Shown here: piece after piece, positions 18,927 to 33,585 of the stretch | How the letters are laid out: each line of letters opens with the position of its first letter | How positions within the stretch are numbered: position 1 is the first letter of the stretch | Source: Nocardioides sp. | Lineage (GTDB): Bacteria > Actinomycetota > Actinomycetes > Propionibacteriales > Nocardioidaceae | DNA length: 35,605 bases | Assembly: GCA_025965275.1 (NCBI GenBank) | Contig: JAOPXG010000099.1 | Span: forward strand, 1 to 35,605 | Direction: 5' to 3' | The notes under the pieces: generated by a model | What the model was told of the DNA's origin: nothing | The model's database searches: none | What the model saw: only the letters and a program-made list of their open reading frames with translations | Translations under genes and position numbers: made by a program

Positions 18927-18928
18927 GG

Positions 18929-19228
18929 TCAGGACTGATCCTCCGCTCGCCCGGTGCCGGCCTGGTGTGCAGGCCCGGTCAGGTCCGGATCCCGGTCGGT
19001 CTCGCTGGACTCCGCACCCGGCTGCTCGTCGGCAGGTGAGGCGTCCCCGCCGGTGCCCGGGTCGGCGTCGTCAACGCCTTCCACCGGGCCGGTCGCTCCT
19101 CCGGTCCTGGCACCGTCCTTGGTGCTCTCCTCGGAGCCGTCGATGTCGGCGGACTCCCGGCGACCCTCGTAGGGCGGGACGGCCTTGCCTTCGGTGTCCG
19201 GGTCGTCAGGGTTGGGGCTGGTGGTCAT
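18929..19228 (-). CDS. Acidic, low-complexity small protein of the hydrogenase locus
   Basis: 99-residue protein rich in Asp, Glu, Gly, Pro and Ser, with no hydrophobic core and no Cys; it is predicted to be disordered. It starts MTTSPNPDDPDTEGKAVPPY. The gene is credible because GAGAGGAG lies 6 nt before the ATG and it sits tightly between other hydrogenase genes. Function unknown; a flexible adaptor or chaperone-like tether is conceivable. It resembles the next small protein in composition rather than in alignable sequence. Confidence 0.7.
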   Translation of the reverse strand: MTTSPNPDDPDTEGKAVPPYEGRRESADIDGSEESTKDGARTGGATGPVEGVDDADPGTGGDASPADEQPGAESSETDRDPDLTGPAHQAGTGRAEDQS

Positions 19229-19252
19229 GTCGGTCTCCTCTCCAAGGGGCTG

Positions 19253-19459
19253 CTAGCCGCCGCCGGACTGCAGGTCCGGAGCGCCGGGATCCCGGGCTCC
19301 CTGCGGGTTGACGGACGTGTCCGACTCCTCGTCCGCCGTGCCCGCGGGACGGTCGACCGGGCCTCCGCCCGGCTCGTCGGAGCCCGTGTCGCGGGACCCC
19401 TCGGAGCCGCGCTCCTCCTGCGGTTCCTCCTCCAGGTGTTCGCCTGGCGTCTCACTCAT
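19253..19459 (-). CDS. Second acidic, disordered small protein
   Basis: 68-residue protein, MSETPGEHLEEEPQEERGSE and so on, ending in LQSGGG. It is strongly acidic, Gly/Pro-rich and Cys-free. The ATG at 19459 is chosen over an upstream in-frame codon because GAGAGGAG lies 6 nt before it. It is separated by 24 nt from the 99-residue ORF and by 26 nt from the membrane peptide gene. I do not recognise a family. Confidence 0.68.
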   Translation of the reverse strand: MSETPGEHLEEEPQEERGSEGSRDTGSDEPGGGPVDRPAGTADEESDTSVNPQGARDPGAPDLQSGGG

Positions 19460-19485
19460 GACGATCTCCTCTCGCTTTCTCGCCC

Positions 19486-19605
19486 TCACATCTGGCGGAT
19501 CTTGAGGTACCTCTTGATGTCGGGGATGGACATGACGGCCACGGCGACGACGACCAGCGCCACCGCGGCGATGACAAGGGCGGTCAGCATTCCCAGTGCT
19601 CTCAT
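19486..19605 (-). CDS. DUF6893-type 39-residue membrane peptide
   Basis: A single-span membrane peptide. MRALGMLTALVIAAVALVVV forms the start of one helix, followed by SIPDIKRYLKIRQM, a basic cytoplasmic tail. I recognise this as the DUF6893 type of small protein that occurs next to actinobacterial hydrogenase genes. Its ATG overlaps the stop of the 459-residue gene as ATGA, and GAGAGGAG lies 8 nt upstream, so it is both coupled and independently initiated. A membrane anchor for an otherwise soluble hydrogenase is a plausible role, but it is inferred. Confidence 0.78.
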   Translation of the reverse strand: MRALGMLTALVIAAVALVVVAVAVMSIPDIKRYLKIRQM

Positions 19606-20981
19606 GAGCGACTCTCCTCTCGTGCTTGGTCCAGCGGTTCGAGCTCTTCCGGTCCGAAGTAGAAGTAGCGGCCGTACCAGTCGTGCAGGTCGGCCGCGGG
19701 GTCGTCGACCAGGACGACAGCGACGTGCGTCTCCCCCTCGACGTCGGAGAGGACGGCCGTCACCCGGGCCACCTGGTCGGCGAAGAACAGGTCCTGGGCG
19801 TCGGCGCGCCGGGACGGGTGCACCCGGACCAGACTCCCCTTCGCGACGCGCACGCCGTTGATCACGACGCTGTCCGTGTCGGGCTGGACGCTCTCGTCCG
19901 CGGCCGGGTCCCACCAGGGGACGTCGCCCGGGCCCCGGACGGCCTCGGACAACGCCTGCACGCCGTGGGGATCGCGCAGCACACCGTGCAGGTCCCGCAG
20001 GGTGTCCGGAGACATCTGGTCGCACCGGTCGATGATCTCGGCCGCGCGGGGATCCGTGGCCCGGGCCTCTGCCTTCTCGGCGTCCGTCATGGTCATCACC
20101 CGCAGGGTCAGGATCTCGTCGATCTCTGTCGAGTCGAACAGTGCCCCCGCGCTCTGCTCGGCAATCTCCGGGTAGTCGTAGAGAATGATCGGCGAACCCA
20201 GCACGACGTCGGAGGACACGGTCGGCCCGACCAGCACGGGGTAGCACCGCCGCTGCCGACACCGCTCGGCCGCGGCCGCGGCGGCCTCTGGCGGCTCCAG
20301 CAGGGACACGAAGCCGGCGCCGTCGGCCACGACCAGCACGTGGGTCCCGATCAGGGAGAGCCGGATGGCCGCGTCCTTGCCGTCGGCCCGGTCGGGATGG
20401 GTGTTCGCCACCTCGACGCTGAGCCGGACCAGCCCGTCGTCCGGCTCGGCCGCGATGCTCACCTCGGCGTGCAGCGGGGACCGGCGGCGTACGATCCGGC
20501 CGACCTCGGTGCCGGAGGCGTCGACGACCGCCTCGACGTCCTCGCCGCCCGGCACGTCGACCGGGGTCCGCACCGGCGACGCCGCGGCCTGCAGCGCGCC
20601 GGAGAGGTCGTACGCCGGCAGCTCGACCTCGCACTCGCAGGCCTCGTCCCAGCTCAGCACCGTCCGGTCGTCGACGGTCAGCTCGCCCACGGGCCGGTAC
20701 CCGTCGTCCGTCAGCTCCTCGACCGACCGGATCTGCAGCTGGAGGAACCGCAGCAGCACCGTCACGGCGCTCGCGCCCGGCTCGAGCAGGCACTGCAGGG
20801 ACATCGCCGGGTCCTCGGCGAAGCTCGCCGCGGACGCGCTCGGCGGGCCCAGGACCCCGAACTGCCAACGGGACTGGTTCTTCGAGGAGCTCGCCCGGTA
20901 GGGGTAGAGCAGGTAGCCCTCGTAGAGGACGGCGTCGGCGATGGCCCGCACCTGCTCCAGCTCCCGGTGATCGAGATTCAT
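19602..20981 (-). CDS. Hydrogenase-cluster conserved protein, 459 residues, unknown function
   Basis: Soluble protein without signal peptide or membrane helix. The opening includes VLYEGYLLYPYRASSSKNQS followed by RWQFG, a segment I associate with actinobacterial hydrogenase operons. The middle is rich in beta-type sequence (RTVLSWDEACECEVELPAYD), with RCRQRRCYPVLVGP later, and it ends near LHDWYGRYFYFGPEELEPLD. No catalytic motif is evident. The ATG at 20981 overlaps the DUF6084 gene by 4 nt; the longer frame to 21407 lies inside DUF6084 and is rejected. Position among the maturation genes argues for a role in assembly or electron transfer. Confidence 0.85.
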   Translation of the reverse strand: MNLDHRELEQVRAIADAVLYEGYLLYPYRASSSKNQSRWQFGVLGPPSASAASFAEDPAMSLQCLLEPGASAVTVLLRFLQLQIRSVEELTDDGYRPVGELTVDDRTVLSWDEACECEVELPAYDLSGALQAAASPVRTPVDVPGGEDVEAVVDASGTEVGRIVRRRSPLHAEVSIAAEPDDGLVRLSVEVANTHPDRADGKDAAIRLSLIGTHVLVVADGAGFVSLLEPPEAAAAAAERCRQRRCYPVLVGPTVSSDVVLGSPIILYDYPEIAEQSAGALFDSTEIDEILTLRVMTMTDAEKAEARATDPRAAEIIDRCDQMSPDTLRDLHGVLRDPHGVQALSEAVRGPGDVPWWDPAADESVQPDTDSVVINGVRVAKGSLVRVHPSRRADAQDLFFADQVARVTAVLSDVEGETHVAVVLVDDPAADLHDWYGRYFYFGPEELEPLDQAREESRS

Positions 20982-21619
20982 GACGGGGCACCGTCTCGGG
21001 CACCCAGCAGCGCCTGCACGGTCTCTTCCCAGCTGGTCAGCCCGTGCCGGGACTTGAAGTCGGCCAGGTCCGCGAGCACCTCGTGGTCGAGACGGATCCA
21101 GCCCGTGTTGGGGAAGTGGGACCGAATCATCTGCTGCCACACCTCGACCGGCAGCTGGTAGGAGGCCTCGCAGTCCCAGGGCACCTGCTCGACGCCGAAC
21201 CCGTTCGCGCCCTTCGTGAACACGGTGCCGGAGAACAGCAGCGCCAGCGGGATGGTGCCCTCCCCCACGGCGTGCAGGAACCGCGAGCCCGTGACCTCGA
21301 AGTCGTATGTGCACGGCAACGCGAGATCGACCTCGGTGATGCCGGTGAAGCCCTGCACCATCGCGTTGCACTGCATCCACAGGAACGGCCTGAGCGTGTC
21401 GGCCCACCGGTCCCGATCACCGAACAGGGCACGCAACCCGGTCTCGTCGGCCGCGTCGTAGTGCCGACGCTGCGGCTCGATCCGCACCTGGCAGCGCAAC
21501 GCGATCGCGTGGACCGTCTCACCGGTGGACTCCAGGATGCGCAGCCGGGCGGTCAGCTGTGGGTCGGCGGCGTACGGCTCCGCGAAGATGTCGACGACCG
21601 AGAACGAGTAGGTGCCCAT
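20978..21619 (-). CDS. DUF6084 family protein
   Basis: 213-residue protein beginning MGTYSFSVVDIFAEPYAADP. It contains LRCQVRIEPQRRHY and ends in a segment with PNTGWIRLDHEVLADLADFK. I recognise it as DUF6084, found in the same position of other actinobacterial group 1h hydrogenase clusters. No metal-binding motif is visible. The ATG at 21619 follows the stop of DUF5947 as TGATG; a GTG one codon earlier is the alternative. Function unknown. Confidence 0.82.
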   Translation of the reverse strand: MGTYSFSVVDIFAEPYAADPQLTARLRILESTGETVHAIALRCQVRIEPQRRHYDAADETGLRALFGDRDRWADTLRPFLWMQCNAMVQGFTGITEVDLALPCTYDFEVTGSRFLHAVGEGTIPLALLFSGTVFTKGANGFGVEQVPWDCEASYQLPVEVWQQMIRSHFPNTGWIRLDHEVLADLADFKSRHGLTSWEETVQALLGARDGAPS

Positions 21620-22281
21620 CACGCCGACCCGGGGTCACTCATCGGAGGAGCCGGCCGGCTGCGCTCGTCGACGGTCGCGAAGAACTCCTGCATCGCGGTG
21701 TGTGCCTCCTGCCCCCCGTCGAAGCCACGCCACAGCGACCGCAGGCGGCCGACCAACTCGTAACAGGTGTCGATCGGGACCACGTGCGCGCTGAAGCCGG
21801 AGTGCTCGCGGTCCGGGCCGCGGAGCAGCAGCGCCTCGACGTCGGCCCGCAGGTGTCCGAGCTCCGGGTTGGCGCGGACGATGCGCTCCCAGGCGTCGAG
21901 TGGCAGCTCGGACTCCGTGGCCCCGGCAGGACCCGGGTAGAAGGCGATGACGCGCTTCTGCACCGAGTTGTGGAACAGGAACGCCAGCCCGACGGGGATC
22001 TGGAGGTCGTCCCACTCCGCCGCGCCGAACGCGAAGTCGGGGAACGAGAGATAGCGGTCGGGGACGGCGCGATAGCGGAGCTCGGCGTGCTCGGCGGTGA
22101 AGAGCAGGTAGCACCCGCGACAGGTGCACATCAGCACCCGGCTCTCCAGGTTCACCACGTGCGGGTGGTCGTCGACGATCGGCGCCGCGCACATCTCGCA
22201 ACGCTCCCCGACCGGGGGCTCCGGCCGGGTGCTGGCGATCCGCCGCAGCGACGACAGCGGGGTGCGACCGGTCGCCGTCAT
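21619..22281 (-). CDS. DUF5947 family protein with Cys clusters
   Basis: 220-residue protein. Cys28 and Cys31 (GERCEMCAAPI) and Cys52, Cys54 and Cys57 (MCTCRGCYLLF) give a zinc-ribbon or rubredoxin-like pattern in the N-terminal third. The rest is a mixed fold with YLSFPDFAFGAAEWDDLQIP. I recognise it as DUF5947, which lies between NifU-like and DUF6084 genes in actinobacterial hydrogenase operons. It might bind Fe or Zn and act in cluster assembly or electron transfer, but this is inference. The ATG at 22281 is 7 nt after the NifU/Rieske gene stop. Confidence 0.84.
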   Translation of the reverse strand: MTATGRTPLSSLRRIASTRPEPPVGERCEMCAAPIVDDHPHVVNLESRVLMCTCRGCYLLFTAEHAELRYRAVPDRYLSFPDFAFGAAEWDDLQIPVGLAFLFHNSVQKRVIAFYPGPAGATESELPLDAWERIVRANPELGHLRADVEALLLRGPDREHSGFSAHVVPIDTCYELVGRLRSLWRGFDGGQEAHTAMQEFFATVDERSRPAPPMSDPGSA

Positions 22282-22288
22282 CGCGTGC

Positions 22289-23203
22289 TCATGCTGGTAC
22301 GGCGATCGCGACCGACGTGATGCCGCCCTCGGTCAGCAGGGGTACGGGGGTCAGGTGCAGGGCGTCGTCGTCGAGGCAGGCACCGGCTCGACGGACGTCG
22401 TAGTGGGCCTGGCAACGCGGGCAGCGCAGCACGGCTTCGCCGACGGCGGCGCCCAGCCGGCGGGACAGCACGACTCCCTGCATCGAGGCCTCGCAACGAG
22501 CGCAGCGGTCGAGGTAGGCGAACAGGTCGGTGCCCAGCCGGCAGACCAGCACCGCGGCGTGCCCCACCTCCACGGTCGCCACCTCGCCCGGACCCAGGTC
22601 GGGCAGACCCGGGAGCGGCTCCCAGGACGCCTGGTCACCCGCCTGCGCGTCGAGCCGCGTGCGCAGCGACGCGACCGGAATCAGCGTCTCGGCCCCGCCC
22701 TCGGCCGGTGCGTCCTCCACGTCGATGGCCACGATCTCCGGAGCGGCGGCCTCGATGGCCCCCTCGACGGCGAGCTTGAGGGTGACGGACGAGGACGGGC
22801 AGCCGTCACAGCTGCCGAGGAGCCGCAGCCGGACCGTGCCTTCCTCGCTCACGCCGAGCAGCTCGACGTCCCCACCGTGGGAGCCGAGGTAGGGCCGGAC
22901 GCTCTCCAGGGCACGCTCGACGCGCTGCTCCACGCCGTAGGGGTGCAGCCCGTGCACCAGGAGCAGGCTGGCCACCAGGTCGTCGCCGGCGAGCGCGCCC
23001 AGGACGTCGTCGTCGAGCCGCCCCGCGTCGTAGAGGATCTCGAGGATCCGCTCGATGCCCGCGCCGTAGAGATCCGCGACCAGTCGGACGAGCTCCTCGG
23101 CCCGCTCGCGGGCCACCACCCCGCCGGCCCCGCTGGCGTCGAGCAGGACGTCGATCCGCTCACCAGTGGCCCGGAGGCCGTCTGCTGCGTCGGGCTCCGC
23201 CAT
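22289..23203 (-). CDS. NifU-like / Rieske-like fusion protein
   Basis: 304-residue protein of two parts. A helical N-terminus (1-90) leads to a NifU C-terminal-like domain (about 92-160) with the scaffold motif Cys132 and Cys135 in SCDGCPSSSVTLKL. A Rieske-like domain follows at about 195-302. In the latter, the usual C-x-H and C-x2-H ligands are instead C234-A-R-C237 and C261-P-R-C264, with His267 beyond. It probably carries or delivers an Fe or Fe-S centre to the hydrogenase or its electron acceptor. The start is 4 nt after hhyL, so it is co-translated. The mechanism is unproven. Confidence 0.87.
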   Translation of the reverse strand: MAEPDAADGLRATGERIDVLLDASGAGGVVARERAEELVRLVADLYGAGIERILEILYDAGRLDDDVLGALAGDDLVASLLLVHGLHPYGVEQRVERALESVRPYLGSHGGDVELLGVSEEGTVRLRLLGSCDGCPSSSVTLKLAVEGAIEAAAPEIVAIDVEDAPAEGGAETLIPVASLRTRLDAQAGDQASWEPLPGLPDLGPGEVATVEVGHAAVLVCRLGTDLFAYLDRCARCEASMQGVVLSRRLGAAVGEAVLRCPRCQAHYDVRRAGACLDDDALHLTPVPLLTEGGITSVAIAVPA

Positions 23204-23207
23204 GCGG

Positions 23208-24998
23208 CTAGCCGCTGACGGACTGGGTCGGCGAGTGCATCAGCTCGAGCTCGTGGCCCTCGCCGAGGTACATGTGCACGCCGCACGGCAGACAGGGGTC
23301 GAAGCTGCGCACGGTGCGCATGATGTCGATGCCCTTGAAGTGCTCGCGGTCGTTCTCCTCGAAGATCGGTTGACCCTGCACGGCGTCCTCGTAGGGACCC
23401 GGCGTGCCGAACGAGTCACGCGGGTTGGCGTTCCAGGGGGTCGGCGGGTAGGGGTGGTAGTTGGCGATCTTGCGGTCGCGGATCACCAGGTGGTGGCTGA
23501 GCACCCCGCGGACCGCCTCGGTGAAGCCGCAGCCGATGCTCTCGTCCGGCACGGTGAACTTCTCCCACGTCTTTGTGCGGCCGGCGCGGATCTCCACGAG
23601 GGCCTTCTCGGCGAAGTGCAACGCGCACGCCGCGGCGTACGCCTGGAAGTAAGTGCGCGCCCGGTTGCGCTCGATGGTGTTGCTCCACTGCGGGATCTTC
23701 CACTCCAGCTCGACCGGCCCCTTGAGCACGGTCTTGGGCAGGTTGATCTTCACCGAGCTGCCGGTGGACTGGACGTAGCCGATGTCGACGAGGCCGGCGA
23801 GGGCGGTCGACCACAGCCGGGCGAGCGGCCCGCCACCGGTGTCGAGCGCGAGGTAGTCCTTGCCGTCGAACCAGCGCGGTGACATCACCCAGCTGTACTT
23901 GCCGTCGAGGTCGCGCTTCTGCGGCTTCGGGTTGGTGTGCTGGTTCCAGGGGTGCCGCCGGTCGACGGGGTTGCCGAGCGGGTCGTTCCTCACGAACACC
24001 TCCTGGTCCTCCCAGTCGTCGTAGTACGACGAGCCGAGGAGGATCCGGATGCCGAGATTGATCTCGACCAGGTCGGTGGTGACCAGCTTGCCGTCGACGA
24101 CCACGCCGGGGGTGACGTACATCTTCCGGCCCCAGTTGGTCATGTCCTTGTACTCGAAGTTGCAGTGCTCCGGGTCCTGGAAAGACCCCCAGCAGGCCAG
24201 CAGGATGCGGCGGTTGCCGACCTGCTCGTAGCCGGGGAGTGCCTGGTAGAAGAAGTCGAAGAGGTCGTCGTGCATCGGGACGACCTTCTTCATGAACTCC
24301 ACGTAGCGCATCAGCCGGGTGATGTAGTCGGTCATCAGCTGGATGGTGGCCACGGTTCCCACGCCGCCGGGGTACAGCGTGGACGGGTGGACGTGGCGTC
24401 CCTCCATCAGGCAGAACATCTCGCGGGTCCAGCGGCTGACCTGCAGCGCCTCGCGGTAGAACTCGCCGGTGAACGGGTTCAGCGACCGCATGATGTCGCC
24501 GATCGTCCGGTAGCCGTGGGCGTCCGCGTGCGGCGCCTCGGTGGTGTTGGCCAACTCGAGCACCCCCGGGTTGGTCTCCGCGACCATCTTCTCGCAGAAG
24601 TCCACCCCGACCAGGTTCTCCTGGAAGATGTTGTGGTCGAACATGTACTCCGCGGCCTCGCCCAGGTTGACGATCCACTCACCGAGGTGCGGGGGCTTCA
24701 CGCCGTACGCCATGTTCTGGGCGTAGCAGGAGCAGGTGGCGTGGTTGTCGCCGCAGATGCCGCAGATGCGGCTGGTGATGAAATGCGCGTCCCGCGGGTC
24801 CTTGCCCTTCATGAAGATCGAGTAGCCGCGGAAGATCGAGCTGGTGCTCTTGCACTCGGCGACGACCTTCTGGTTGAAGTCGATCTTCGTGTAGATCCCC
24901 AGGCTCCCGACGATGCGGGTGATCGGGTCCCACGCCATCTCGGTCAGGCCGGTGGAATCTTCCTTCGTGCTGCTCGGGGAGGGGATCGTCGACGTCAT
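23208..24998 (-). CDS. hhyL: [NiFe]-hydrogenase large subunit, actinobacterial group 1h type
   Basis: 596-residue catalytic subunit. Nickel ligands are Cys79 and Cys82 in RICGICGDNHATCS and Cys569 and Cys572 in DPCLPCGVH. The 21-residue tail after His575 is what the endopeptidase (18441-18926) would remove. Length and the CGDNH variant fit the actinobacterial high-affinity, oxygen-tolerant enzymes that oxidise atmospheric H2. No Tat signal is present on either subunit, but the small subunit is also leaderless, so the enzyme would be cytoplasmic or peripherally membrane-bound. The 70-bp gap to hhyS contains a hairpin. Confidence 0.95.
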   Translation of the reverse strand: MTSTIPSPSSTKEDSTGLTEMAWDPITRIVGSLGIYTKIDFNQKVVAECKSTSSIFRGYSIFMKGKDPRDAHFITSRICGICGDNHATCSCYAQNMAYGVKPPHLGEWIVNLGEAAEYMFDHNIFQENLVGVDFCEKMVAETNPGVLELANTTEAPHADAHGYRTIGDIMRSLNPFTGEFYREALQVSRWTREMFCLMEGRHVHPSTLYPGGVGTVATIQLMTDYITRLMRYVEFMKKVVPMHDDLFDFFYQALPGYEQVGNRRILLACWGSFQDPEHCNFEYKDMTNWGRKMYVTPGVVVDGKLVTTDLVEINLGIRILLGSSYYDDWEDQEVFVRNDPLGNPVDRRHPWNQHTNPKPQKRDLDGKYSWVMSPRWFDGKDYLALDTGGGPLARLWSTALAGLVDIGYVQSTGSSVKINLPKTVLKGPVELEWKIPQWSNTIERNRARTYFQAYAAACALHFAEKALVEIRAGRTKTWEKFTVPDESIGCGFTEAVRGVLSHHLVIRDRKIANYHPYPPTPWNANPRDSFGTPGPYEDAVQGQPIFEENDREHFKGIDIMRTVRSFDPCLPCGVHMYLGEGHELELMHSPTQSVSG

Positions 24999-25039
24999 CC
25001 CGCCGCCTCTCTGCTAGTGCACTGGCGAACTTCGGCTTG

Positions 25040-25068
25040 TGCGGTGGGGCGCGTTGCGCGCCCCCGCA
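25040..25068 (-). promoter_or_regulatory. Hairpin between hhyS and hhyL
   Basis: GGGGCGCG and CGCGCCCC close a 3-nt loop (8 bp), with a further TGCG/CGCA pairing across a 2-nt bulge. It starts directly after the hhyS stop codon. No T-run follows, so it is more likely an RNA-processing or stability element than a full terminator, since hhyL has no other obvious promoter. Confidence 0.5.
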
Positions 25069-26124
25069 TTACCAGGTGCGGTTGGCTCCGGTCCTCAGCT
25101 GCTTGCCTGGCTTGCGCCACTTGGGTTCCTTGTCCAGCGTGCGCGTCGTCATGTGGCGCAGGCTTCGCATCGTGTTGCCGTAGAGGCCGACCGCGGTGGT
25201 CGAGATCTTGCCGCCCGGGGGCTCGTCCATGAACGGCATGAACTTGTCGGGGAAGCCGGGCATCGTGCACCCGATGCAGATCCCACCCACGTTGGGGCAG
25301 CCGCCCACGCCGTTCATCCAGCCCCGTTTGGGGACGTTGCACTTCACGACCGGACCCCAGCAGCCGAGCTTGACGATGCACTTCGGCGAGCCGTACTCGG
25401 TGGCGAAGTCGCCCTGCTCGTAGTAGCCGGCCCGGTCACACCCCTCGTGCACGGTCTGGCCGAACAGCCACGTGGGTCGCAGCGCCTCGTCGAGCGGGAT
25501 CATCGGCGCCTGACCGGTGGCCATGTAGAGCAAGTACGTCAGCGTCTCCGACATGTTGTCGGGCTGGGCGGGGCAGCCCGGGACGCACACGATCGGAATG
25601 CCGGCCTTCGACTTCCATTCCCAGCCCAGGTAGTCGGGAACGCCCATGGCAACGGTCGGGGTGCCGGCCATCGCGTGGATGCCGCCGTACGTCGCGCAGG
25701 TGCCGACCGCGACGACGGCCGTGGCCTTCGGAGCGAGCCGGTCCAGCCATTCACTCGTCGTCATGGGCTGGCCGGTCATCGGGTCGTTGCCGAACCCGCA
25801 CCAGTAGCCCTCCTCGTGCAGCTGTTCGTTGGGGATGGAGCCCTCCACAACCAGCACGAACGGCTCGAGCTCGCCGCGGTCGGCCTTGAAGAACCACTCC
25901 AGGAAGTCGTCTGCGCCGCCGTTGGGCCCGCACTCGAAGTCGATCAGCGGCCAATGGACCGCGATCTGGGGCAGCCCGGGGAGGGCGCCGAGCGCGATCT
26001 CCTCGATGCTGGGCTGCGTGGCTGCGGTCAGGGCGACGGAGTCTCCGTCGCAGCTGAGGCCTGCGTTGATCCACAAGACGTGGATGAGTGTCTCTTCAGC
26101 CTTGACTGCTTCGGCTGTGGGCAT
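25069..26124 (-). CDS. hhyS: [NiFe]-hydrogenase small subunit, actinobacterial group 1h type
   Basis: 351-residue Fe-S subunit without a Tat leader. The proximal cluster site reads Cys25-Asp-Gly-Asp28 (LSCDGDSVAL), with Cys143 (GTCATYGG) and Cys184 (PGCPAQPDN). The usual C-x2-C is thus C-x2-D, giving 3Cys1Asp ligation as in the Ralstonia actinobacterial-type enzyme. Later Cys clusters (HEGCDRAGYY, LGCWGPVVKCN, GGICIGCTMPGFPDKF) carry the medial and distal centres. It passes electrons from the large subunit to the respiratory chain. The ATG at 26124 has only a weak ribosome site (GGAG about 11 nt upstream). Confidence 0.95.
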   Translation of the reverse strand: MPTAEAVKAEETLIHVLWINAGLSCDGDSVALTAATQPSIEEIALGALPGLPQIAVHWPLIDFECGPNGGADDFLEWFFKADRGELEPFVLVVEGSIPNEQLHEEGYWCGFGNDPMTGQPMTTSEWLDRLAPKATAVVAVGTCATYGGIHAMAGTPTVAMGVPDYLGWEWKSKAGIPIVCVPGCPAQPDNMSETLTYLLYMATGQAPMIPLDEALRPTWLFGQTVHEGCDRAGYYEQGDFATEYGSPKCIVKLGCWGPVVKCNVPKRGWMNGVGGCPNVGGICIGCTMPGFPDKFMPFMDEPPGGKISTTAVGLYGNTMRSLRHMTTRTLDKEPKWRKPGKQLRTGANRTW

Positions 26125-26179
26125 AGATGCCGGCTCTCCGGGGCCCCACGTGGTCCCAATCGGAAGGCGGAGGCCATCG

Positions 26180-26195
26180 TGTGACCTCTGTCACT
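26180..26195. promoter_or_regulatory. CRP/GlxR-like palindrome upstream of hhyS
   Basis: The 16-bp site is TGTGA, six bases (CCTCTG), then TCACT, one mismatch from the TGTGA-N6-TCACA consensus of actinobacterial CRP/GlxR proteins. Its centre is about 64 nt upstream of the hhyS start, in the 137-bp hypB-hhyS gap. It suggests energy- or carbon-status control of the structural genes. Binding is not shown. Confidence 0.5.
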
Positions 26196-26261
26196 TGTCT
26201 CCCAGTCATGAGAGTCCCGAGCAAACCGTCTGTCAAGGGATTCACCCAAATAGGTGAGAAG

Positions 26262-27044
26262 TCAGCCGAGCCACTCGAGCCAGGCCTCGAAGTTCTCGCC
26301 GGTCCGGGCCGACACGGGGCGCACCTGGACGTCCGGGTTGATCATCCGGGCGTCGCGGATGAGCCGGTCGGCGTCGAAGTCGACGTAGGGCAGCAGATCC
26401 GTCTTGTTGAGGACCACGAGGTCGGCCGCGGCGAACATGTGTGGGTACTTGAGGGGCTTGTCGTCCCCCTCGGTCACCGAGATCACCACGACCCTCCGCT
26501 TCTCGCCGAGGTCGAACAACGCCGGGCAGACCAGGTTGCCCACGTTCTCGATGAACACGATGCTGTCGCGTTCCGGCTGCAGCTGCTCCAGCGCCCGCGA
26601 CACCATCGCCGCGTCGAGGTGGCACCCGGCGCCGGTGTTCACCTGCACGGCTCGGGCCCCGGCTCGCCGGATGCGTTCGGCGTCGAACAGCGTCTCCTGG
26701 TCGCCCTCGATCACCGTGACCGGGCGACCGGCCGCGGCGATGGTGCGCTCGAGCAACGTGGTCTTGCCGGCGCCCGGAGAGCTCATCAGGTTCAGGGCGG
26801 TGATGCCGCGCTCGCACAACCAGTCCCGGTTGCGCGCCGCCAGCCCGTCGTTCTTCGCGAGCACGGCCACCTCGAGCTCGAGGGTGTGGGTGCGCAGCTC
26901 CGCGTCCTGCTCGACGTGGACGTGGTCGTGACCGTGCTCGTCACCGTGGTCGTGGGTGTGGCCGTGCCCGTGCCCGGTCGACCCGTCCGCGCCCAGGGTG
27001 GTCAGCCGTACGTCGGCCTCCCCGCAGCCGCAGGTGCTGCACAT
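26262..27044 (-). CDS. hypB: Hydrogenase nickel incorporation GTPase HypB
   Basis: 260-residue GTPase. The N-terminus has the CSTCGC nickel motif (Cys2, Cys5, Cys7), and nine histidines at alternating positions lie between residues 25 and 43, a nickel-storage stretch. The P-loop is SSPGAGKTTLLE at about 88-99, the metal-linked Cys141-His142 lies in GAGCHLDA, Cys173 follows in GNLVCP, and NKTD gives base specificity. It loads nickel with HypA into the large subunit. The start is 1 nt from hypA. Expected lengths and motifs are all present. Confidence 0.97.
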   Translation of the reverse strand: MCSTCGCGEADVRLTTLGADGSTGHGHGHTHDHGDEHGHDHVHVEQDAELRTHTLELEVAVLAKNDGLAARNRDWLCERGITALNLMSSPGAGKTTLLERTIAAAGRPVTVIEGDQETLFDAERIRRAGARAVQVNTGAGCHLDAAMVSRALEQLQPERDSIVFIENVGNLVCPALFDLGEKRRVVVISVTEGDDKPLKYPHMFAAADLVVLNKTDLLPYVDFDADRLIRDARMINPDVQVRPVSARTGENFEAWLEWLG

Positions 27045-27045
27045 C

Positions 27046-27372
27046 TCAGGCCACCTCCACCGACGTCACCGAGAGGTCGCGGCCGGCCAGCAGCTCGACG
27101 TCCGCACTGCCGCAGGGGCAGAGCAGGAACGCGTCGTCGAGCAGGATCTCCTGGCCGCACGACCGGCAGCGCGCACGCCCCCGCTGCTCCTCGATCTCAA
27201 GCAGGGCTCCTTCGAGGGGGGTGCCCTGGGTGGCGATCTCGAAGCAGAACGTGAGGGCGTCGGGGACCACACCGGACAGCTGCCCGACCCGCAGGCGTAC
27301 GACGTTCACGTGAGCGTCGGTGCGTTCGAGCACCGAGGTCACCACGCTCTCCGCGATCGCCAGCTCATGCAT
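27046..27372 (-). CDS. hypA: Hydrogenase maturation nickel metallochaperone HypA
   Basis: 108-residue HypA. MHELAIAESVV fixes the start at the ATG at 27372, since the Ni-binding His2 must follow Met1; a GTG two codons upstream would break this. Zinc ligands are Cys69 and Cys72 (CRSCGQE) and Cys85 and Cys87 (CPCGS). The second pair is C-x-C rather than the usual C-x2-C, apparently one residue short. It is the first hydrogenase gene on this strand, so the promoter for hypAB should lie at 27373-27507. Confidence 0.95.
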   Translation of the reverse strand: MHELAIAESVVTSVLERTDAHVNVVRLRVGQLSGVVPDALTFCFEIATQGTPLEGALLEIEEQRGRARCRSCGQEILLDDAFLLCPCGSADVELLAGRDLSVTSVEVA

Positions 27373-27380
27373 GGGCACGT

Positions 27381-27507: not shown

Positions 27508-28839
27508 ATGTCCATCCCCACTCAGATGAGCCTGGTCGGCTTTGCCGCATCCGCGCCGGAGCTTCACTTCACCAAGAAGGGCGACGAGTGCTGCCGCCTT
27601 CGCGTCGGTGTCGAGCAGTGGCGCAAGGAGGTAGCTGGGACCTCCACGAAGCTCGATCCGACCGTCCACGACATGGTTGTCTTCGAGAGCACCGCCCGGG
27701 AGACCTACGCGCGGTTCCGCCCGGGTGACTCCTTCGTTGCCAGCGGCTACATCCACGAGTTCGAGGTCGAGCACCGCGACGGGGCGAGTGTCATCAAGGA
27801 GGAGTTCGTCGCCAAGAAGATTGGACATGACGCGAACAGGACCGACTACCTCGTCCAGCCCGGACGACACACCACCCCCGAGGACGGCCACGACCGGGGC
27901 GTGACGGACCTACTTGGGCGCCCGCCGGCACCGATCAACTGGAACCTGCTCGACGCGAACGAGGCTGACCTCGAGTGGCACGACCTCGACCTGTGGGTGA
28001 CCTGGCTGAAGTTCACCTTCGGGCTCCCGCCCTCGATCGTTCCGCCCCACTGGCACCGCCACGACGAGCTCGGCTGGGAACTGTCCGCGCTCCACACCCA
28101 CTGGTTGAGCTGCCACCATGAGAGCGCGAACGCCTCAGCACCGATCGCCTGGCTCCGCGACTTCGCCGACGCACGCAATCGGCTGCGGGACTGGGTGGCG
28201 ATCTGCGGCACGCGGCTCGATCGTGACCGCCCGACCCGGCAGGCGGTCTGGCCCGGCGAACGAGCCGTCGATGCCGGTGTCGAGGTCCCCATCGGGGACA
28301 GGCGACGGGATTTCGAGGAGTTTGTCCGCGCCGGCGACGGATCAGCGACGGCACGATCCTGGCCTACCAGTGCGGTCGGAGGCCCATCCGAATCCGCCTG
28401 GAAGAACTGTAGATTTGAACGTCGCACGGTGGATCCATCGCGCACCGAGGCGCAGACTGTGGCTGACCGCCCCTTGTTGGAAGACAAGCTCTCGGAGATG
28501 TCATGCGCATACTCGGACCCGTCGTCGCCGCAGTTCTGGGCCTCACCCTGGCGGCAACGAACCCAGCGATTGCTTCGCATCAGTCCCTGTCCAACCAAGA
28601 GCCTCAGGGCGATGCCGTCCCGGCGATCGCCGGCACGGCAGCGGCTGTCGACCTTCCTGACGACGGTGACGGCACGCAGGCTGCTGTCCTCTACGACTGG
28701 GGTGCTCCCGACGCGGGCGACGAGTTCAACTACACCGGAGCGCCCGATCCGGCGAAGTGGTCGGTCTACAACAGCGCCGGGCATGCCGGTAACGGGCTCC
28801 GCCGCCCGGCGGCGTGGAGCGGCAACGGCTCGGTCATGA
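27508..28839 (+). CDS. ICE-type single-stranded DNA-binding protein fused to an unknown domain; 3' end decayed
   Basis: Residues 1-115 (MSIPTQMSLVGFAASAPELH, later EEFVAKKIGHDANRT) match SSB proteins of actinobacterial conjugative elements. From about residue 135 a tryptophan-rich domain follows (EWHDLDLWVTWLKFTFGLPP, HWHRHDELGWELSALHTHWL), of a kind seen beside plasmid or ICE genes, perhaps DUF4913-like. AGGAG lies 6 nt before the ATG at 27508. Recognisable sequence stops near DFEEFV (28323). After that the frame runs on without homology through an excisionase remnant and 337 nt into the next gene, so the natural stop appears lost. The first 270 residues may still be expressed. Confidence 0.6.
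   Translation: MSIPTQMSLVGFAASAPELHFTKKGDECCRLRVGVEQWRKEVAGTSTKLDPTVHDMVVFESTARETYARFRPGDSFVASGYIHEFEVEHRDGASVIKEEFVAKKIGHDANRTDYLVQPGRHTTPEDGHDRGVTDLLGRPPAPINWNLLDANEADLEWHDLDLWVTWLKFTFGLPPSIVPPHWHRHDELGWELSALHTHWLSCHHESANASAPIAWLRDFADARNRLRDWVAICGTRLDRDRPTRQAVWPGERAVDAGVEVPIGDRRRDFEEFVRAGDGSATARSWPTSAVGGPSESAWKNCRFERRTVDPSRTEAQTVADRPLLEDKLSEMSCAYSDPSSPQFWASPWRQRTQRLLRISPCPTKSLRAMPSRRSPARQRLSTFLTTVTARRLLSSTTGVLPTRATSSTTPERPIRRSGRSTTAPGMPVTGSAARRRGAATARS
28338..28412 (+). pseudogene. C-terminal remnant of an excisionase-type DNA-binding protein
   Basis: In the +2 frame relative to the SSB gene, the sequence reads RRISDGTILAYQCGRRPIRI and then RLEEL before a TAG at 28410. This matches the end of the small MerR-like/HTH_17 excisionases of actinobacterial integrative elements (pattern ISDGT-x-AYR-x-G-x3-IRI). 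The helix-turn-helix start is missing, so this is a tail fused by deletion to the SSB-type gene. It marks the region as former mobile DNA. Confidence 0.55.
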
Positions 28840-30275
28840 GGGTCACGGGGAACTCTGCGGGGACGACCGGTGGCATGGCCGCGTTGTTCGACCGGCGCAA
28901 GTACGGGCGCTGGGAGACCCGAATGAGGACCAGCGACCGCGACTCCAAGTACCACCCGGTGCTGCTCCTGTGGCCGGACTCCGAGAACCGGACGTGCGAC
29001 GGCGAGATCGACTACGCCGAGGGCGTTGCCGACACGACACGCATTCACACGTACCTGCGCTACGGATGCGCGGACAGCCAGACCCGCGCCGTGCAGGTCG
29101 TCGACACCACCCAGTGGCACAACTACGCGGTCGAGTGGACGCCCTCCGGCGTCAGGTCGTGGATCGACGGCGTGCTGTTGTTCAGTGACACCGACACCAG
29201 CCACCTGCCACCCGGCCCCATGCACTCCACGATGCAACTGGACTGGTTCCCGGACGGCACCGCCACGACCCCCTCGTGGATGGAGGTCGACTGGACCCGC
29301 GTCTACGACATCACCACGACGCCCACGCCCACCCCCACCCCGACGCCCACGCCCACACCGACGCCCACACCAACTCCCCCGCCGCCGCCGCCCGGCGACG
29401 TGGTTCACCTCGCCGCCGTCGGTGACATGAACCCGGCCGGCAACACGTCCTCCACCAGCCCGTCCGGCAGGAACGCCGCGGACATCAAGGCGGCTCTCGA
29501 CGCCGGGCAGGTCTCCGCCTTCCTCGGGCTCGGGGACTTTCAGTACGACGTCGGCAACTGCTCGTCCTTCGTGAACGCCTGGGACCGGGCGGGGTGGGCC
29601 GGGGTCAAGCCGAAAACATATTGGATCAGCGCCCCGAACCACGACTGGGATCCCGGTCGTAACGAGGACCTCGACAACTTCATGGACGGCGAGTGTGCGG
29701 GGGACACCACCAAGTCGCTGACCAACCAGCAGAAGGGTTTCGTCGGCAACGGGAAGCCCTACTCGGTGGACATCGGCAACTGGCACTTCGCCTTCCTGTC
29801 GACGGCGCTCTGGCGGTTCGACGTGGCGAAGGCGAATCAGGTCACCACCTGGCTTGACAACGACCTGGCCGCAGCGAAGGCGGCGGGCAAGCACCTTGCC
29901 GTCGCTTACCACGACCCCTACTTCACGTCGAACACGTCCACCCACACGCGGGAGGCCGCGGTGAAGCCGTGGATCGACGTGATGTGGAAGTACCGGGTCC
30001 GGCTCACCCTGTCCGGCTCGCAGCACAACTACGAACGGTCCTGCCCGGTGAACAACGCCGACCAGTGCGTGGCCGACGGGATGACCGCCTTCCAGGTGTC
30101 GACCGGCGGAATCGGTCTCCGGTCCTTCACCAGCAGCCCGGCCTACATCGTGCGGCGGTTCTCCGACACGTATGGCTGGCTCGGGCTCGACCTCAACCCT
30201 GACGGGTCGTTCGACTGGCAGTTCAACCCCGTCTCCGGTGCCAGCACCGACAGCGGGAGTCGGGCGGCTCCGTGA
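28503..30275 (+). CDS. Secreted GH16 domain - PT linker - metallophosphatase chimera
   Basis: 590 residues with a signal peptide (MRILGPVVAAVLGLTLAATN, ending near IASH). Residues about 63-268 are a GH16 glycanase fold with the catalytic pattern Glu168-Ile-Asp170-x2-Glu173 in CDGEIDYAEG. A Thr-Pro linker (271-297) leads to a calcineurin-type metallophosphatase (298-575) with Asp308, Asp345 (GLGDFQYD), Asn379-His380, His470 and His508 (GSQHNYER). In the last motif the usual G-H-x-H lacks the first His (Ser506). GGAG lies 6 nt before the ATG. It may cleave beta-glucan-type polymers and phosphoesters outside the cell. The 5' end overlaps the run-on SSB frame. Confidence 0.85.
   Translation: MRILGPVVAAVLGLTLAATNPAIASHQSLSNQEPQGDAVPAIAGTAAAVDLPDDGDGTQAAVLYDWGAPDAGDEFNYTGAPDPAKWSVYNSAGHAGNGLRRPAAWSGNGSVMRVTGNSAGTTGGMAALFDRRKYGRWETRMRTSDRDSKYHPVLLLWPDSENRTCDGEIDYAEGVADTTRIHTYLRYGCADSQTRAVQVVDTTQWHNYAVEWTPSGVRSWIDGVLLFSDTDTSHLPPGPMHSTMQLDWFPDGTATTPSWMEVDWTRVYDITTTPTPTPTPTPTPTPTPTPTPPPPPPGDVVHLAAVGDMNPAGNTSSTSPSGRNAADIKAALDAGQVSAFLGLGDFQYDVGNCSSFVNAWDRAGWAGVKPKTYWISAPNHDWDPGRNEDLDNFMDGECAGDTTKSLTNQQKGFVGNGKPYSVDIGNWHFAFLSTALWRFDVAKANQVTTWLDNDLAAAKAAGKHLAVAYHDPYFTSNTSTHTREAAVKPWIDVMWKYRVRLTLSGSQHNYERSCPVNNADQCVADGMTAFQVSTGGIGLRSFTSSPAYIVRRFSDTYGWLGLDLNPDGSFDWQFNPVSGASTDSGSRAAP
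29313..29393 (+). repeat. Thr-Pro/Pro microsatellite linker
   Basis: About 80 bp of imperfect CCNACN hexamers encode (Thr-Pro)n followed by six prolines, joining the GH16 and phosphatase domains. Such tracts vary in length by slippage and are typical of actinobacterial secreted multidomain enzymes. Confidence 0.9.
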
Positions 30276-30811: not shown

Positions 30812-31018
30812 GTGGCGCACCCCGGTGACTTCCACTTCGTGCCGGCGGGCTGGGTGCACGGCTTCCGCGGCTCCGGCCGCGCCTCGATGCTGCTGATGTT
30901 CGCGCCGGGCGGACCGCGCGAGGACGACTTCGAGACCCTCGCGCGGCTCGCCGAGCACCCCATGACCGAGGAGGAGCGGGCCGGGTTCATGCTCCGGCAC
31001 GACACCTACTGGGTGTGA
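30812..31018 (+). pseudogene. C-terminal fragment of a cupin-domain protein
   Basis: 68 residues: AHPGDFHFVPAGWVHGFRGS then MLLMFAPGGPREDDF and a typical tail ending RHDTYWV. GDFxFVPAGxxHGFR is the second cupin motif, but the first motif and N-terminus are missing. Upstream in frame there is only non-homologous sequence to a stop at 30758. The fragment is intact in frame and might be called as a gene, but it cannot form a full cupin. Confidence 0.6.
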
Positions 31019-31043: not shown

Positions 31044-32309
31044 TCAGCGGTAGACGCGGACCCAGTCGACCTCCATCCAGGACGGGGTGGTGGTGGTGCC
31101 GTCGGGGAACCAGTCGAGCTGGATCGTCTGGTGCGCCGGGTCGTCGGGGATCTGCGAGGCGTCGGTGGACTCGAAGTACTTCACCCCGTCGATGTAGCCG
31201 CGCACCGTCCCAGCGCGCCACTCGATGGCGTAATTGTGCCACCGGGTCATGTCGAGGGTCTGGGAGGCGTAGGCCTGCGCACCCGAGCACGAGTGGTGGA
31301 GGAAGAAGCTGACATTGTCGACGGTCTTGGTCGACTCGGCGTAGTCCATCTCGGCGCAGTTGTTGGCCGTCCCGCTGCCCTGCTGAGGCCAGAGGATCAG
31401 CACCGGGTGGTACTCGGTGTCGCGTCCGGGGCTGACCCGCATCCGGGCCTCCCACTTGCCGTAGGTCTGGTTGAACCGCTGCGACATCCCGCCCGTGGTG
31501 CCGTGGGCGTCGCCGGTGATCCGCAGCGCCGAGCCGTTGACCGTCACCTGGCTGCGTGACCGCAGGCCGTTGCCGGCGTGACCGGCGGAGTTGTAGACCG
31601 ACCACTTCGTCGAGTCGGGGGCCCCGGTGTAGTTGAACTCGTCGCCGGCGACCGGGGCGCCCCAGCCGTTCACCACGGCGGCCTCCGTCGAAGCCGTGCC
31701 GCTCGTCGACCCGCCTGTCGACGTGGCTCCGTCGTCGAGGCTCAGCGAGAGCCGCGGCGGCGTCGTCGTCTCACGGGAGGCGAGGACGAGGTTGTCCGAC
31801 ACCTTCTGGGTGATGACCAGCGACAACGTGCCGCCGACGGCGCTCTGCAGCGCGCTGATGCTCAGTGGGACCCGGTAGGTCGTTCCGGACGAGCTGGGCC
31901 CGGCCAGAGTGCCGACGCTGGTCCCGGACGCCGGGGCGTTCCGGTAGGTGAGCGTCGACTCCGACCACGAGCCCGACGTCACCGACACGGTCTGCGACCC
32001 GGCCGACCCCGAGCCGGAGCCCAGGGTGTGCAGGCGCAGGCTGGCCGCCGTAAGCGTGCCCGTCCGGTCGGTGAGGTCGAACTTGACGTACGTCTTGTAG
32101 GTCGTCGCGCCGGCGCCCACGTACAGCTTGGTGCTGGTGGCGTGGACGGCCGCCGGGTCCGATGACGAGACGTAGGTGTCGCCCACGGCAGTCTCGGTGA
32201 CGGTGCTCACCGTGGCCCGTGCGCTGTCGGGAGCGACCGAGACGCCCGCCAGGAGCAGGCCGCCGCTCGCCGCGAGCGCGGCCAGGGCGCGATGCATCGT
32301 GTTCTTCAT
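31044..32309 (-). CDS. Secreted DNRLRE - GH16 glycoside hydrolase
   Basis: 421 residues. A signal peptide (MKNTMHRALAALAASGGLLL, cleaved near ARA) is followed by a DNRLRE/CBM-type domain (about 35-195; VGDTYVSSSDPAAVHATSTK, KLYVGAGATTYKTYVKFDL) and a Ser/Thr-Gly linker. A GH16 domain (about 215-421) comes last, with catalytic Glu-Met-Asp-x2-Glu in CAEMDYAEST. It probably binds and cuts beta-1,3- or mixed-linkage glucans or galactans outside the cell. Its GH16 part is closely related to that at 28503-30275 (shared EFNYTGAPD, KWSVYNSAGHAGNGLR, PSWMEVDW). AAGGA lies 5 nt before the ATG. The two genes converge with about 770 bp of relics between them. Confidence 0.9.
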   Translation of the reverse strand: MKNTMHRALAALAASGGLLLAGVSVAPDSARATVSTVTETAVGDTYVSSSDPAAVHATSTKLYVGAGATTYKTYVKFDLTDRTGTLTAASLRLHTLGSGSGSAGSQTVSVTSGSWSESTLTYRNAPASGTSVGTLAGPSSSGTTYRVPLSISALQSAVGGTLSLVITQKVSDNLVLASRETTTPPRLSLSLDDGATSTGGSTSGTASTEAAVVNGWGAPVAGDEFNYTGAPDSTKWSVYNSAGHAGNGLRSRSQVTVNGSALRITGDAHGTTGGMSQRFNQTYGKWEARMRVSPGRDTEYHPVLILWPQQGSGTANNCAEMDYAESTKTVDNVSFFLHHSCSGAQAYASQTLDMTRWHNYAIEWRAGTVRGYIDGVKYFESTDASQIPDDPAHQTIQLDWFPDGTTTTPSWMEVDWVRVYR

Positions 32310-33009: not shown

Positions 33010-33326
33010 AACCAGCGGCGCGAAGAAGGCGTCCAGGTCCCCCTTGGAGACCCGGTGGGAGGGGTCGTAGAACTTGCACTGGATCGCGGCGTACCCCTCG
33101 CCATCCTTCAGCTTGGCGACCAGGTCGACTCCGGTGTCCCGGCGCCCCCTCCCGCTCGGCGCTCCGACCCCAGCCACACGTCGGAGAACCTGTTCACCCA
33201 CTCCGGCTCCGTGCGCAGCAGGTTCAGCACCAGCCGCTCAAACTTGTCCCCCTTGTCCCGCTCGTCCAGAGCGGTCCCACGGAGTCCCTCGAGAACATCA
33301 TGGATCGAGACAGACACGGGCGTCAC
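33010..33326 (-). pseudogene. Frameshifted N-terminal remnant of a restriction/helicase protein (type ISP-like)
   Basis: A GTG at 33326 opens the frame with SIHDVLEGLRGTALDERDKG, then DKFERLVLNLLRTEPEW and RFSDVWL. Homology then jumps frame near 33160-33180 to RRDTGVDLVAKLKDGEGYAA and IQCKFYDPSHRVSKGDLDAF. This is the Mrr-like nuclease start of DEAD-box/type ISP restriction enzymes, with D-G/T-D and Q-x-K type residues. One indel breaks the frame and everything after DAFF is lost, where the full protein would run to over 1,000 residues. It is a dead relic of a defence system. Confidence 0.72.
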
Positions 33327-33501: not shown

Positions 33502-33513
33502 ACATGCTTGAGG

Positions 33514-33585
33514 TGGGCGATACTGGGTTCGAACCAGTGACCTCTTCGGTGTGAACGAAGCGCGCTACCACTGCGCCAATCGCCC
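33514..33585 (-). tRNA. tRNA-Val (anticodon CAC)
   Basis: 72-nt cloverleaf on the minus strand. The acceptor arms are GGGCGAT and ATCGCCC with discriminator A; the anticodon arm CTTCG-TTCACAC-CGAAG gives anticodon CAC. The T-loop is GTTCGAAC. The 3' CCA is not encoded. It differs from the tRNA-Val(GAC) at 35289 mainly in the anticodon arm. Its 3' end faces the decayed region to the left, the usual geometry for an integrative-element attachment site. Confidence 0.97.

What the first reader, a model, noticed from the sequence alone, without database searches (positions are those of the whole stretch)
28503..30275. GH16 glycanase joined to a metallophosphatase with an altered metal site
One secreted chain combines a GH16 domain with an intact ExDxxE, a Thr-Pro linker and a calcineurin-type phosphatase lacking the first His of GHxH (Ser506). 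The combination suggests attack on a phosphate-bearing polysaccharide such as teichoic-acid-type polymers. I do not know a described protein with this arrangement.
Basis: partly seen in the sequence, partly recalled or inferred. Interest (0 to 1): 0.6.

Follow-up and report, generated by a model that had tools for sequence, protein, structure and literature searches.

The report
Sugar-cutting enzyme fused to phosphatase
A secreted protein from an actinobacterium joins a polysaccharide-cutting domain to an unusual phosphatase domain; the same pairing recurs in Arthrobacter genomes and in some phages, which suggests a two-step attack on a phosphate-bearing glycan that still has to be tested.

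Summary
Window 28503-30275 (+) is one open frame of 590 aa: signal-like N-terminus, GH16 domain with EIDYAE, Thr-Pro linker, and a purple-acid-phosphatase-like (PAP) metallophosphoesterase with Ser506 where PAPs have His. It is not a sequencing join: 25 other non-redundant bacterial ORFs carry both domains, 23 of them close relatives from the Arthrobacter genus and one more genus of its family. Ser506 is Ser in 74 of 74 close proteins, the window's included. Of four second-metal (M2) ligands, one is always changed and another (Asn379) varies in 7 of 74; the tyrosinate-iron (M1) site is intact.

Beyond the finding: phage contigs carry the same CBM96-GH16-phosphoesterase fusion followed by a shared repeat protein; this pair is far more alike between the phages (71-86%) than anything else found shared. 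Three more viral contigs fuse a related GH16 to another phosphoesterase family, PF04185. One GH16 type joined to two phosphoesterase families argues for a substrate with both glycosidic bonds and phosphate.

Ten open-access full-text searches listed no description. Verdict: new variant of known kinds, probably catalytic, substrate unknown.

The parts
28494..28497 (+). GGAG, ribosome-binding-site-like, 5 bases before the ATG
   Evidence: read from the sequence
28503..30275 (+). whole gene, 590 aa, GH16 plus PAP-like metallophosphoesterase
   Evidence: open frame; 25 other non-redundant bacterial ORFs with both domains
28503..28577 (+). signal-peptide-like N-terminus (MRILGPVVAAVLGLTLAATNPAIAS)
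   Evidence: by eye; no signal predictor was run; 13 of 25 fused relatives show a lipobox-like pattern under a loose test
28680..29306 (+). GH16 domain, residues 60-268
   Evidence: Pfam 1.2e-9 on residues 127-265; confident model and laminarinase fold
29004..29021 (+). GH16 motif E168-I-D-Y-A-E173
   Evidence: E168 and E173 invariant in 14 of 14 aligned fusions; the middle D is N in 5 of the 25 fused relatives; catalytic role of the motif is recalled knowledge
29316..29393 (+). Thr-Pro/Pro linker, residues 272-297
   Evidence: model pLDDT below 50 over 274-297
29394..30272 (+). PAP-like metallophosphoesterase domain, residues 298-590
   Evidence: homologues; profile to PDB PAPs
29424..29426 (+). 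Asp308, M1 ligand by alignment
   Evidence: D in 74 of 75 close proteins with a letter
29535..29546 (+). Asp345 (bridging) to Tyr348 (tyrosinate ligand) of GDFQY
   Evidence: each 74 of 74; ligand roles from passages of PMC2267794
29637..29639 (+). Asn379, M2 ligand position, relaxed in the subfamily
   Evidence: N 67, G 3, S 3, T 1 of 74
29910..29912 (+). His470, M2 ligand position
   Evidence: 74 of 74
30018..30020 (+). Ser506 in place of the first His of GHxH (M2 ligand)
   Evidence: S in 74 of 74 close proteins, window included; in 32 other PAP-like proteins H 30, D 1, S 1
30024..30026 (+). His508, second His of GHxH, M1 ligand
   Evidence: 75 of 75
31044..32309 (-). neighbouring paralogue: CBM96 plus GH16, no phosphoesterase found
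   Evidence: Pfam CBM96 2.5e-22 and GH16 5.5e-11; DNA inverted repeats of 74-91% with the GH16 part of the fusion

Best explanation
A secreted (in about half of the fused relatives lipoprotein-like) bifunctional depolymerase. The GH16 domain cuts beta-glycosidic bonds inside a surface or matrix polysaccharide (inferred from fold and motif). The C-terminal domain is a PAP-like phosphoesterase with an intact tyrosinate-iron (M1) site and a remodelled second site in which Ser replaces a His ligand (shown in sequence); it most likely binds a different or weaker second metal, as PhoD does with calcium, and removes or cleaves phosphate on the same polymer (inferred). The gene is mobile: actinobacteria keep it as a wall or exopolysaccharide remodelling or scavenging enzyme, and phages carry it near lysis and structural genes (location shown; use inferred).
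For: Fusion and catalytic residues conserved across genera. Profile link to PAPs and ligand mapping. GH16 fold nearest laminarinases. A related GH16 fused to PF04185 phosphoesterase in 3 viral contigs: a second recruitment of a phosphoesterase. 3 unfused GH16 genes of the fused clade lie beside stand-alone phosphoesterases. PHROG hits show real phages (terminase, portal, capsid, tape measure, endolysin). CBM96, a named carbohydrate-binding module, matches 14 of 25 fused bacterial ORFs and both fused phage proteins. Sugar-nucleotide-type genes beside one fusion and a GT2 gene near another. PhoD precedent: PAP-related, altered second metal site, proposed to act on teichoic acids (passages of PMC4223295).
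Against: No activity, metal or substrate data. The metallophosphoesterase model is partly below pLDDT 50, so the second-site geometry is not seen. Most stand-alone homologues have no GH16 gene within the fetched flanks: 3 of the 25 non-fused loci of 7 kb or more did. Bacterial neighbourhoods are diverse; the polysaccharide-gene link rests on few, partly syntenic loci. Two domains on one chain can also share a location rather than a substrate.
Confidence: 0.5

Rival explanations
1. The phosphoesterase domain has lost catalysis and serves as a glycan- or phosphate-binding module; only GH16 works.
For: One M2 ligand is always Ser and a second (Asn379) varies. Pfam's Metallophos model does not see the window domain.
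Against: Asp345, Tyr348, His380 and His470 are invariant in 74 of 74, His508 in 75 of 75 and Asp308 in 74 of 75, unusual for a dead enzyme. Stand-alone copies without GH16 exist. PhoD works with a rebuilt second site.
Confidence: 0.2
2. Nutrient scavenging: a general secreted glucanase and a general phosphatase in one package, releasing sugar and phosphate from dead biomass, with no shared substrate.
For: Laminarinase-like GH16 fold; a PhoD-like gene (named from recall, not scanned) about 1 kb and about 9 kb from stand-alone copies in 2 loci.
Against: Fusion of this GH16 type with two phosphoesterase families and carriage in phages beside lysis or structural genes fit a shared target better.
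Confidence: 0.25
3. Phage-derived moron or auxiliary gene, later domesticated by bacteria, used to strip the host surface polymer (receptor exclusion or spread through biofilm).
For: A two-gene cassette, fusion (or CBM96-phosphoesterase) plus repeat protein, is shared at 63-86% by phages that otherwise share little: L251's contig shares with the other two only this pair and a lysin region at 32-40%; the other two share tail and lysin proteins at 24-54%.
Against: Many more bacterial than phage copies seen; the repeat protein was not found in the bacterial loci held apart from one weak 42% match over 98 aa; direction of transfer not tested; no hit in 50,697 named phages.
Confidence: 0.2
4. Chimeric assembly or annotation join of two genes.
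For: The source is a 416-contig assembly.
Against: Same domain order in single-contig genomes and in phages; continuous frame.
Confidence: 0.01

Closest known systems
GH16 laminarinases and related endo-beta-glucanases (e.g. 3iln, 4bq1, 4crq; ExoK and BglS models)
   Same: fold, ExDxxE motif
   Different: 15-26% identity to the best 50 structures; far below the ExoK and BglS cut-offs (22 bits against 350 and 300); fused to a phosphoesterase; substrate unknown
Purple acid phosphatases (plant PAPs, PPD1 3zk4, 1kbp)
   Same: M1 site Asp, Asp, Tyr, His; His470; YER after GHxH
   Different: first His of GHxH is Ser; Asn ligand relaxed; fused to GH16, often with CBM96
PhoD phosphodiesterase (Bacillus subtilis)
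   Same: works-like candidate: PAP-related, tyrosinate iron, rebuilt second site, proposed teichoic acid turnover (passages of PMC4223295)
   Different: no PhoD Pfam match; window has Asp308 where PhoD has Cys; not a member
Phage enzymes that cut phosphodiester polymers (phi29 gp12, Ld17 baseplate glycerophosphodiesterase; only titles seen, in the reference list of PMC6116005)
   Same: phage-borne attack on phosphate-bearing surface polymers
   Different: those are named as appendage or baseplate proteins; these have signal-like N-termini and carry GH16

Membership tests
GH16 | GH16 profile match and fold | tested here: met
   Pfam 1.2e-9, cut-off passed; Foldseek laminarinases
GH16 | two catalytic Glu (ExDxxE, recalled) | tested here: met
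   E168 and E173 invariant in 14 of 14
GH16 | beta-glycan hydrolysis | not testable with these tools
   needs an assay
Purple acid phosphatase | M1 ligands Asp, Asp, Tyr, His | tested here: met
   D308, D345, Y348, H508 conserved (roles)
Purple acid phosphatase | M2 ligands Asp, Asn, His, His | tested here: not met
   Ser506 in 74 of 74; Asn379 varies in 7 of 74
Purple acid phosphatase | Pfam Metallophos match | tested here: not met
   none at E<=1; 5 of 16 members of the alignment match, the window not among them
PhoD | PhoD family match | tested here: not met
   no PhoD model among Pfam matches at E<=1
PhoD | Cys at the iron site | tested here: not met
   Asp308; Cys-180 from PMC4223295
PhoD | all-Asp calcium site | tested here: inconclusive
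   model too weak there
Phage depolymerase | carried in phage genomes | tested here: met
   relatives on the L250, L251 and L240/L241 contigs with head and tail genes; the window copy itself is not shown to be phage-borne
Phage depolymerase | part of the virion | not testable with these tools
   signal-like N-termini, by eye, argue for secretion

The most novel reading that the evidence does not exclude
A mobile, phage- and bacterium-borne class of two-headed depolymerases in which one GH16 type has repeatedly recruited phosphoesterases of different families to dismantle a phosphate-substituted surface glycan of actinobacteria, using a PAP domain with a new second-metal site (Ser for His, possibly calcium or mononuclear). 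The polymer would be an undescribed phage receptor or barrier.
Probability: 0.3. Interest if true: 0.8.

Novelty: new variant of a known kind. Interest (0 to 1): 0.62.

Why it matters
If true, it names a specific testable target: a phosphate-bearing surface glycan in Arthrobacter and relatives that phages cut with paired enzymes. It also gives a natural series (74 proteins, all with Ser506) for asking how a purple-acid-phosphatase site works after losing a histidine ligand, and a possible reagent for dissecting actinobacterial envelopes and biofilms.

Tried and rejected
Independent fusion of the window copy: the phosphoesterase half is nearest stand-alone homologues (up to 70%) and the GH16 half nearest unfused Arthrobacter GH16 (63%), so I expected a separate fusion. 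Not established. A first AU test was spoiled by my own labels (duplicate loci of fused proteins counted as unfused); the group counts printed suffer from the same fault. Repeated with right labels: one clade of the 23 fused GH16 rows is rejected (p 0.004), but the clade with the three unfused neighbours added fits better than the free quick tree (p 0.83). The careful 45-row tree leaves the window row unresolved. One ancient fusion with losses and two fusions both remain open for the GSQH proteins. L109 and L218, with GHxH intact and distant GH16 (33% and 31%), are further fused proteins; whether they share that origin is not settled either.

Looked for and not found: a match to the whole protein in 50,697 named phages (tblastn, E<=1e-5); a fused copy among 14 plasmid records with a match (none covers 80%; halves only); a row spanning both halves of PF04185-GH16 in 296 class genomes (E<=1e-40, 35 genomes with a match to one half); PF04185 in 76 cellular GH16 ORFs (0 of 76); a tyrosine-type phage integrase on the four GSQH viral contigs (0 of 4; 1 of the 7 records searched has one, the PF04185 contig of L254; records may be fragments). 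Island ends around the window gene: no clear direct repeats at the tRNA-Val.

Papers: ten searches, listings with starts of abstracts only; none listed a description of GH16 joined to a metallophosphoesterase. One search's three hits were not opened. Passages seen: PMC2267794, PMC6116005, PMC4223295; no paper was read whole. A search for MPPED2 (Gly in GHxH, recalled) listed no structure paper, so I do not rest on it.

Counts and rows dropped: the 74-of-74 count is over 76 rows (window included, others at least 55% identical), less two fragments without letters at the position; rows with the same last 150 residues were counted once; the phage copies are not among them but also read GSQH. The GH16 trees left out most Pseudonocardia rows, and one search also the very distant fused rows. 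The motif pattern missed L218, whose motif reads EIDWPE.

Full report
WHAT IS THERE. The gene at 28503-30275 (+) encodes 590 aa in one frame. GH16 is the only Pfam domain over its cut-off (1.2e-9). The C-terminal 293 aa escape Pfam but are metallophosphoesterase: 5 of 16 members of an alignment match PF00149, and its profile finds plant purple acid phosphatases in the PDB (3zk4 5e-18; 1kbp 2e-15), aligning GDFQY with GDLSY of 1kbp and GSQHNYER with GHVHAYER. An upstream SSB-like frame (Pfam 3.2e-8, start near 27508) runs on some 335 bases into the gene, but from 28501 its GC3 falls below its GC2, so the overlap is probably not coding in that frame.

FUSION IS REAL AND COMMON IN ONE GROUP. Searching 394 genomes of the class with the phosphoesterase domain found copies above 60% identity only in the own genome and in G040, plus more distant PAP-like proteins (102 genomes with any match at 0.001). 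In 150 genomes of G040's genus, 43 had a match at E<=1e-20. Two genomes of that genus have contigs of exactly the length of named Arthrobacter records (AP014718.1 and NZ_JAAOXD010000001.1), so the genus is Arthrobacter by inference. A family-wide search gave 13 of 295 genomes, and the window's own order 3 of 342, the window's genome included. After fetching loci and removing duplicates, 25 ORFs held both GH16 and phosphoesterase: 23 with at least 55% identity to the window phosphoesterase (in 19 of the 150 genomes, plus three genomes of another genus of the family), and two distant ones with GHxH intact (L109, L218). In all 25, GH16 comes before the phosphoesterase. CBM96 matches 14 of the 25, before or after. 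Another 50 close homologues lack GH16 on the same ORF (two further rows are fragments).

THE METAL SITE. In kidney bean PAP, Fe(III) is held by Asp135, Asp164, Tyr167 and His325, and Zn(II) by Asp164, Asn201, His286 and His323 (PMC2267794, passages). By alignment these are D308, D345, Y348, H508 and D345, N379, H470, S506. Among close proteins with a letter there, window included, D345, Y348, H380, H470 and S506 are constant in 74 of 74, H508 in 75 of 75, D308 in 74 of 75; N379 is N 67, G 3, S 3, T 1. In 32 other PAP-like proteins the 506 position is H 30, D 1, S 1. So the change is fixed in the subfamily and falls on one metal site only, while the rest of the active site is under strong constraint. 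That fits a remodelled enzyme better than a dead one. B. subtilis PhoD is a precedent: PAP-related, tyrosinate iron, second site rebuilt for calcium, proposed to release phosphate from teichoic acids (PMC4223295, passages). The window protein is not a PhoD (no PhoD model match, Asp not Cys at the iron site).

PHAGES. A scan of IMG/VR with the phosphoesterase alignment returned ten loci, four of them at 56-57%. L242 and L243 encode a signal-like start, CBM96, GH16 and GSQH phosphoesterase; L240 and L241, with the same protein, encode CBM96-phosphoesterase. PHROG hits make these phages: on the L250/L264 contig (that of L242) terminase large subunit, portal, head protease, major head, tape measure, major tail; on L251 (that of L243) portal, major tail, an endolysin (GH25 plus M23), head-tail adaptor; on L267 (that of L241) major head, tape measure, major tail. 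Between the L250 and L251 contigs the only shared genes found are this one (76%) and the next, a repeat protein (72% over 222 aa), besides a lysin region at 40%. The L240/L241 contigs carry the same pair (81-86% over about 305 aa of the phosphoesterase protein; 63-71% for the repeat protein) and share with L251 otherwise a lysin region at 32%. Against full independence: the L250/L264 and L240/L266 contigs also share several tail and lysin proteins at 24-54%, so those two phages are distant kin; the pair is still much more alike than their other genes. This looks like a two-gene cassette that moves between phages. A scan with the whole fusion gave nine loci. In three (L252, L253, L254) the GH16 lies behind a PF04185 phosphoesterase (4.2e-27, 1.5e-34, 2.2e-25). 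L252 and L254 have phage genes by PHROG; L253 was not scanned, but four of its proteins match L266's at 57-79%, yet it carries PF04185-GH16 where L266 carries CBM96-phosphoesterase. Cellular relatives of L253's protein match in halves only (35 of 296 genomes). No match was found among 50,697 named phages (window protein).

CONTEXT IN BACTERIA. Of the 50 loci of 7 kb or more listed, 25 are fused and 25 are not (one place is held twice among the latter, L184 and L190). Of the 25 non-fused, three have a separate GH16 within about 2 kb (L186 at 39 bases, L194 at 128 bases, L227 at about 2 kb), and these GH16 belong to the fused GH16 clade (L194 is the place of L147). One fusion (L169) is followed by PglD-like, DegT aminotransferase, epimerase and Gfo/Idh genes; one (L174) has a GT2 gene some 4 kb away, and similar gene orders recur in L172, L180 and L183. 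Elsewhere the neighbours vary. The evidence for a polysaccharide locus is suggestive only.

MECHANISM. Shown: domains, conserved residues, recurrence, phage carriage. Inferred: endo-cleavage of a beta-glycan by GH16; phosphate removal or phosphodiester cleavage by the second domain on the same polymer; secretion. The strongest argument for one shared substrate is that one GH16 type is joined to two phosphoesterase families that Pfam keeps apart. Teichoic acid is one candidate among phosphate-bearing glycans; nothing here selects it.

NOVELTY. Both parents are known families. The pairing, the fixed Ser and the phage cassette were not found described in ten full-text searches of an open-access library (named under Tried and rejected), which misses most subscription papers.

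Noticed in passing
window 18444-27378 (-): Looks like a [NiFe]-hydrogenase cluster (large subunit 23211-24998, small subunit 25072-26124, HypB- and HypA-like genes after it); names recalled from sequence, not scanned.
   Followed up: no
window 27508-28500 (+): SSB-like gene (Pfam 3.2e-8) with a sub-threshold DUF4913 stretch, running into the fusion gene; hints at an integrated element between the hydrogenase genes and tRNA-Val at 33512-33585.
   Followed up: partly
window 33111-33326 (-) and 30812-31015 (+): Short frames that look like a broken restriction-type gene and a cupin; recalled, not scanned.
   Followed up: no
L101:4416-7034 (own genome, contig 233): A second phosphoesterase paralogue in the same genome, CBM96 plus phosphoesterase with intact GHQH, 43% identical.
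   Followed up: partly
L061, L062, L066, L069, L076, L078, L081, L085, L091, L098: Pseudonocardia loci carry two GH16 frames of this type side by side; related GH16 also sit on Pseudonocardia plasmids (8 of 14 records).
   Followed up: no
L187:14350-15930 and L188:6566-8161: PhoD-like genes (named from recall, not scanned) about 9 kb and about 1 kb from stand-alone phosphoesterases in two Arthrobacter loci.
   Followed up: no
L250:4125-5918, L251:11636-13354, L240:3967-6363: The repeat protein that follows the enzyme in phages (GIASAQAFGTP-like repeats) has no role known to me; a candidate adhesin or fibre.
   Followed up: partly
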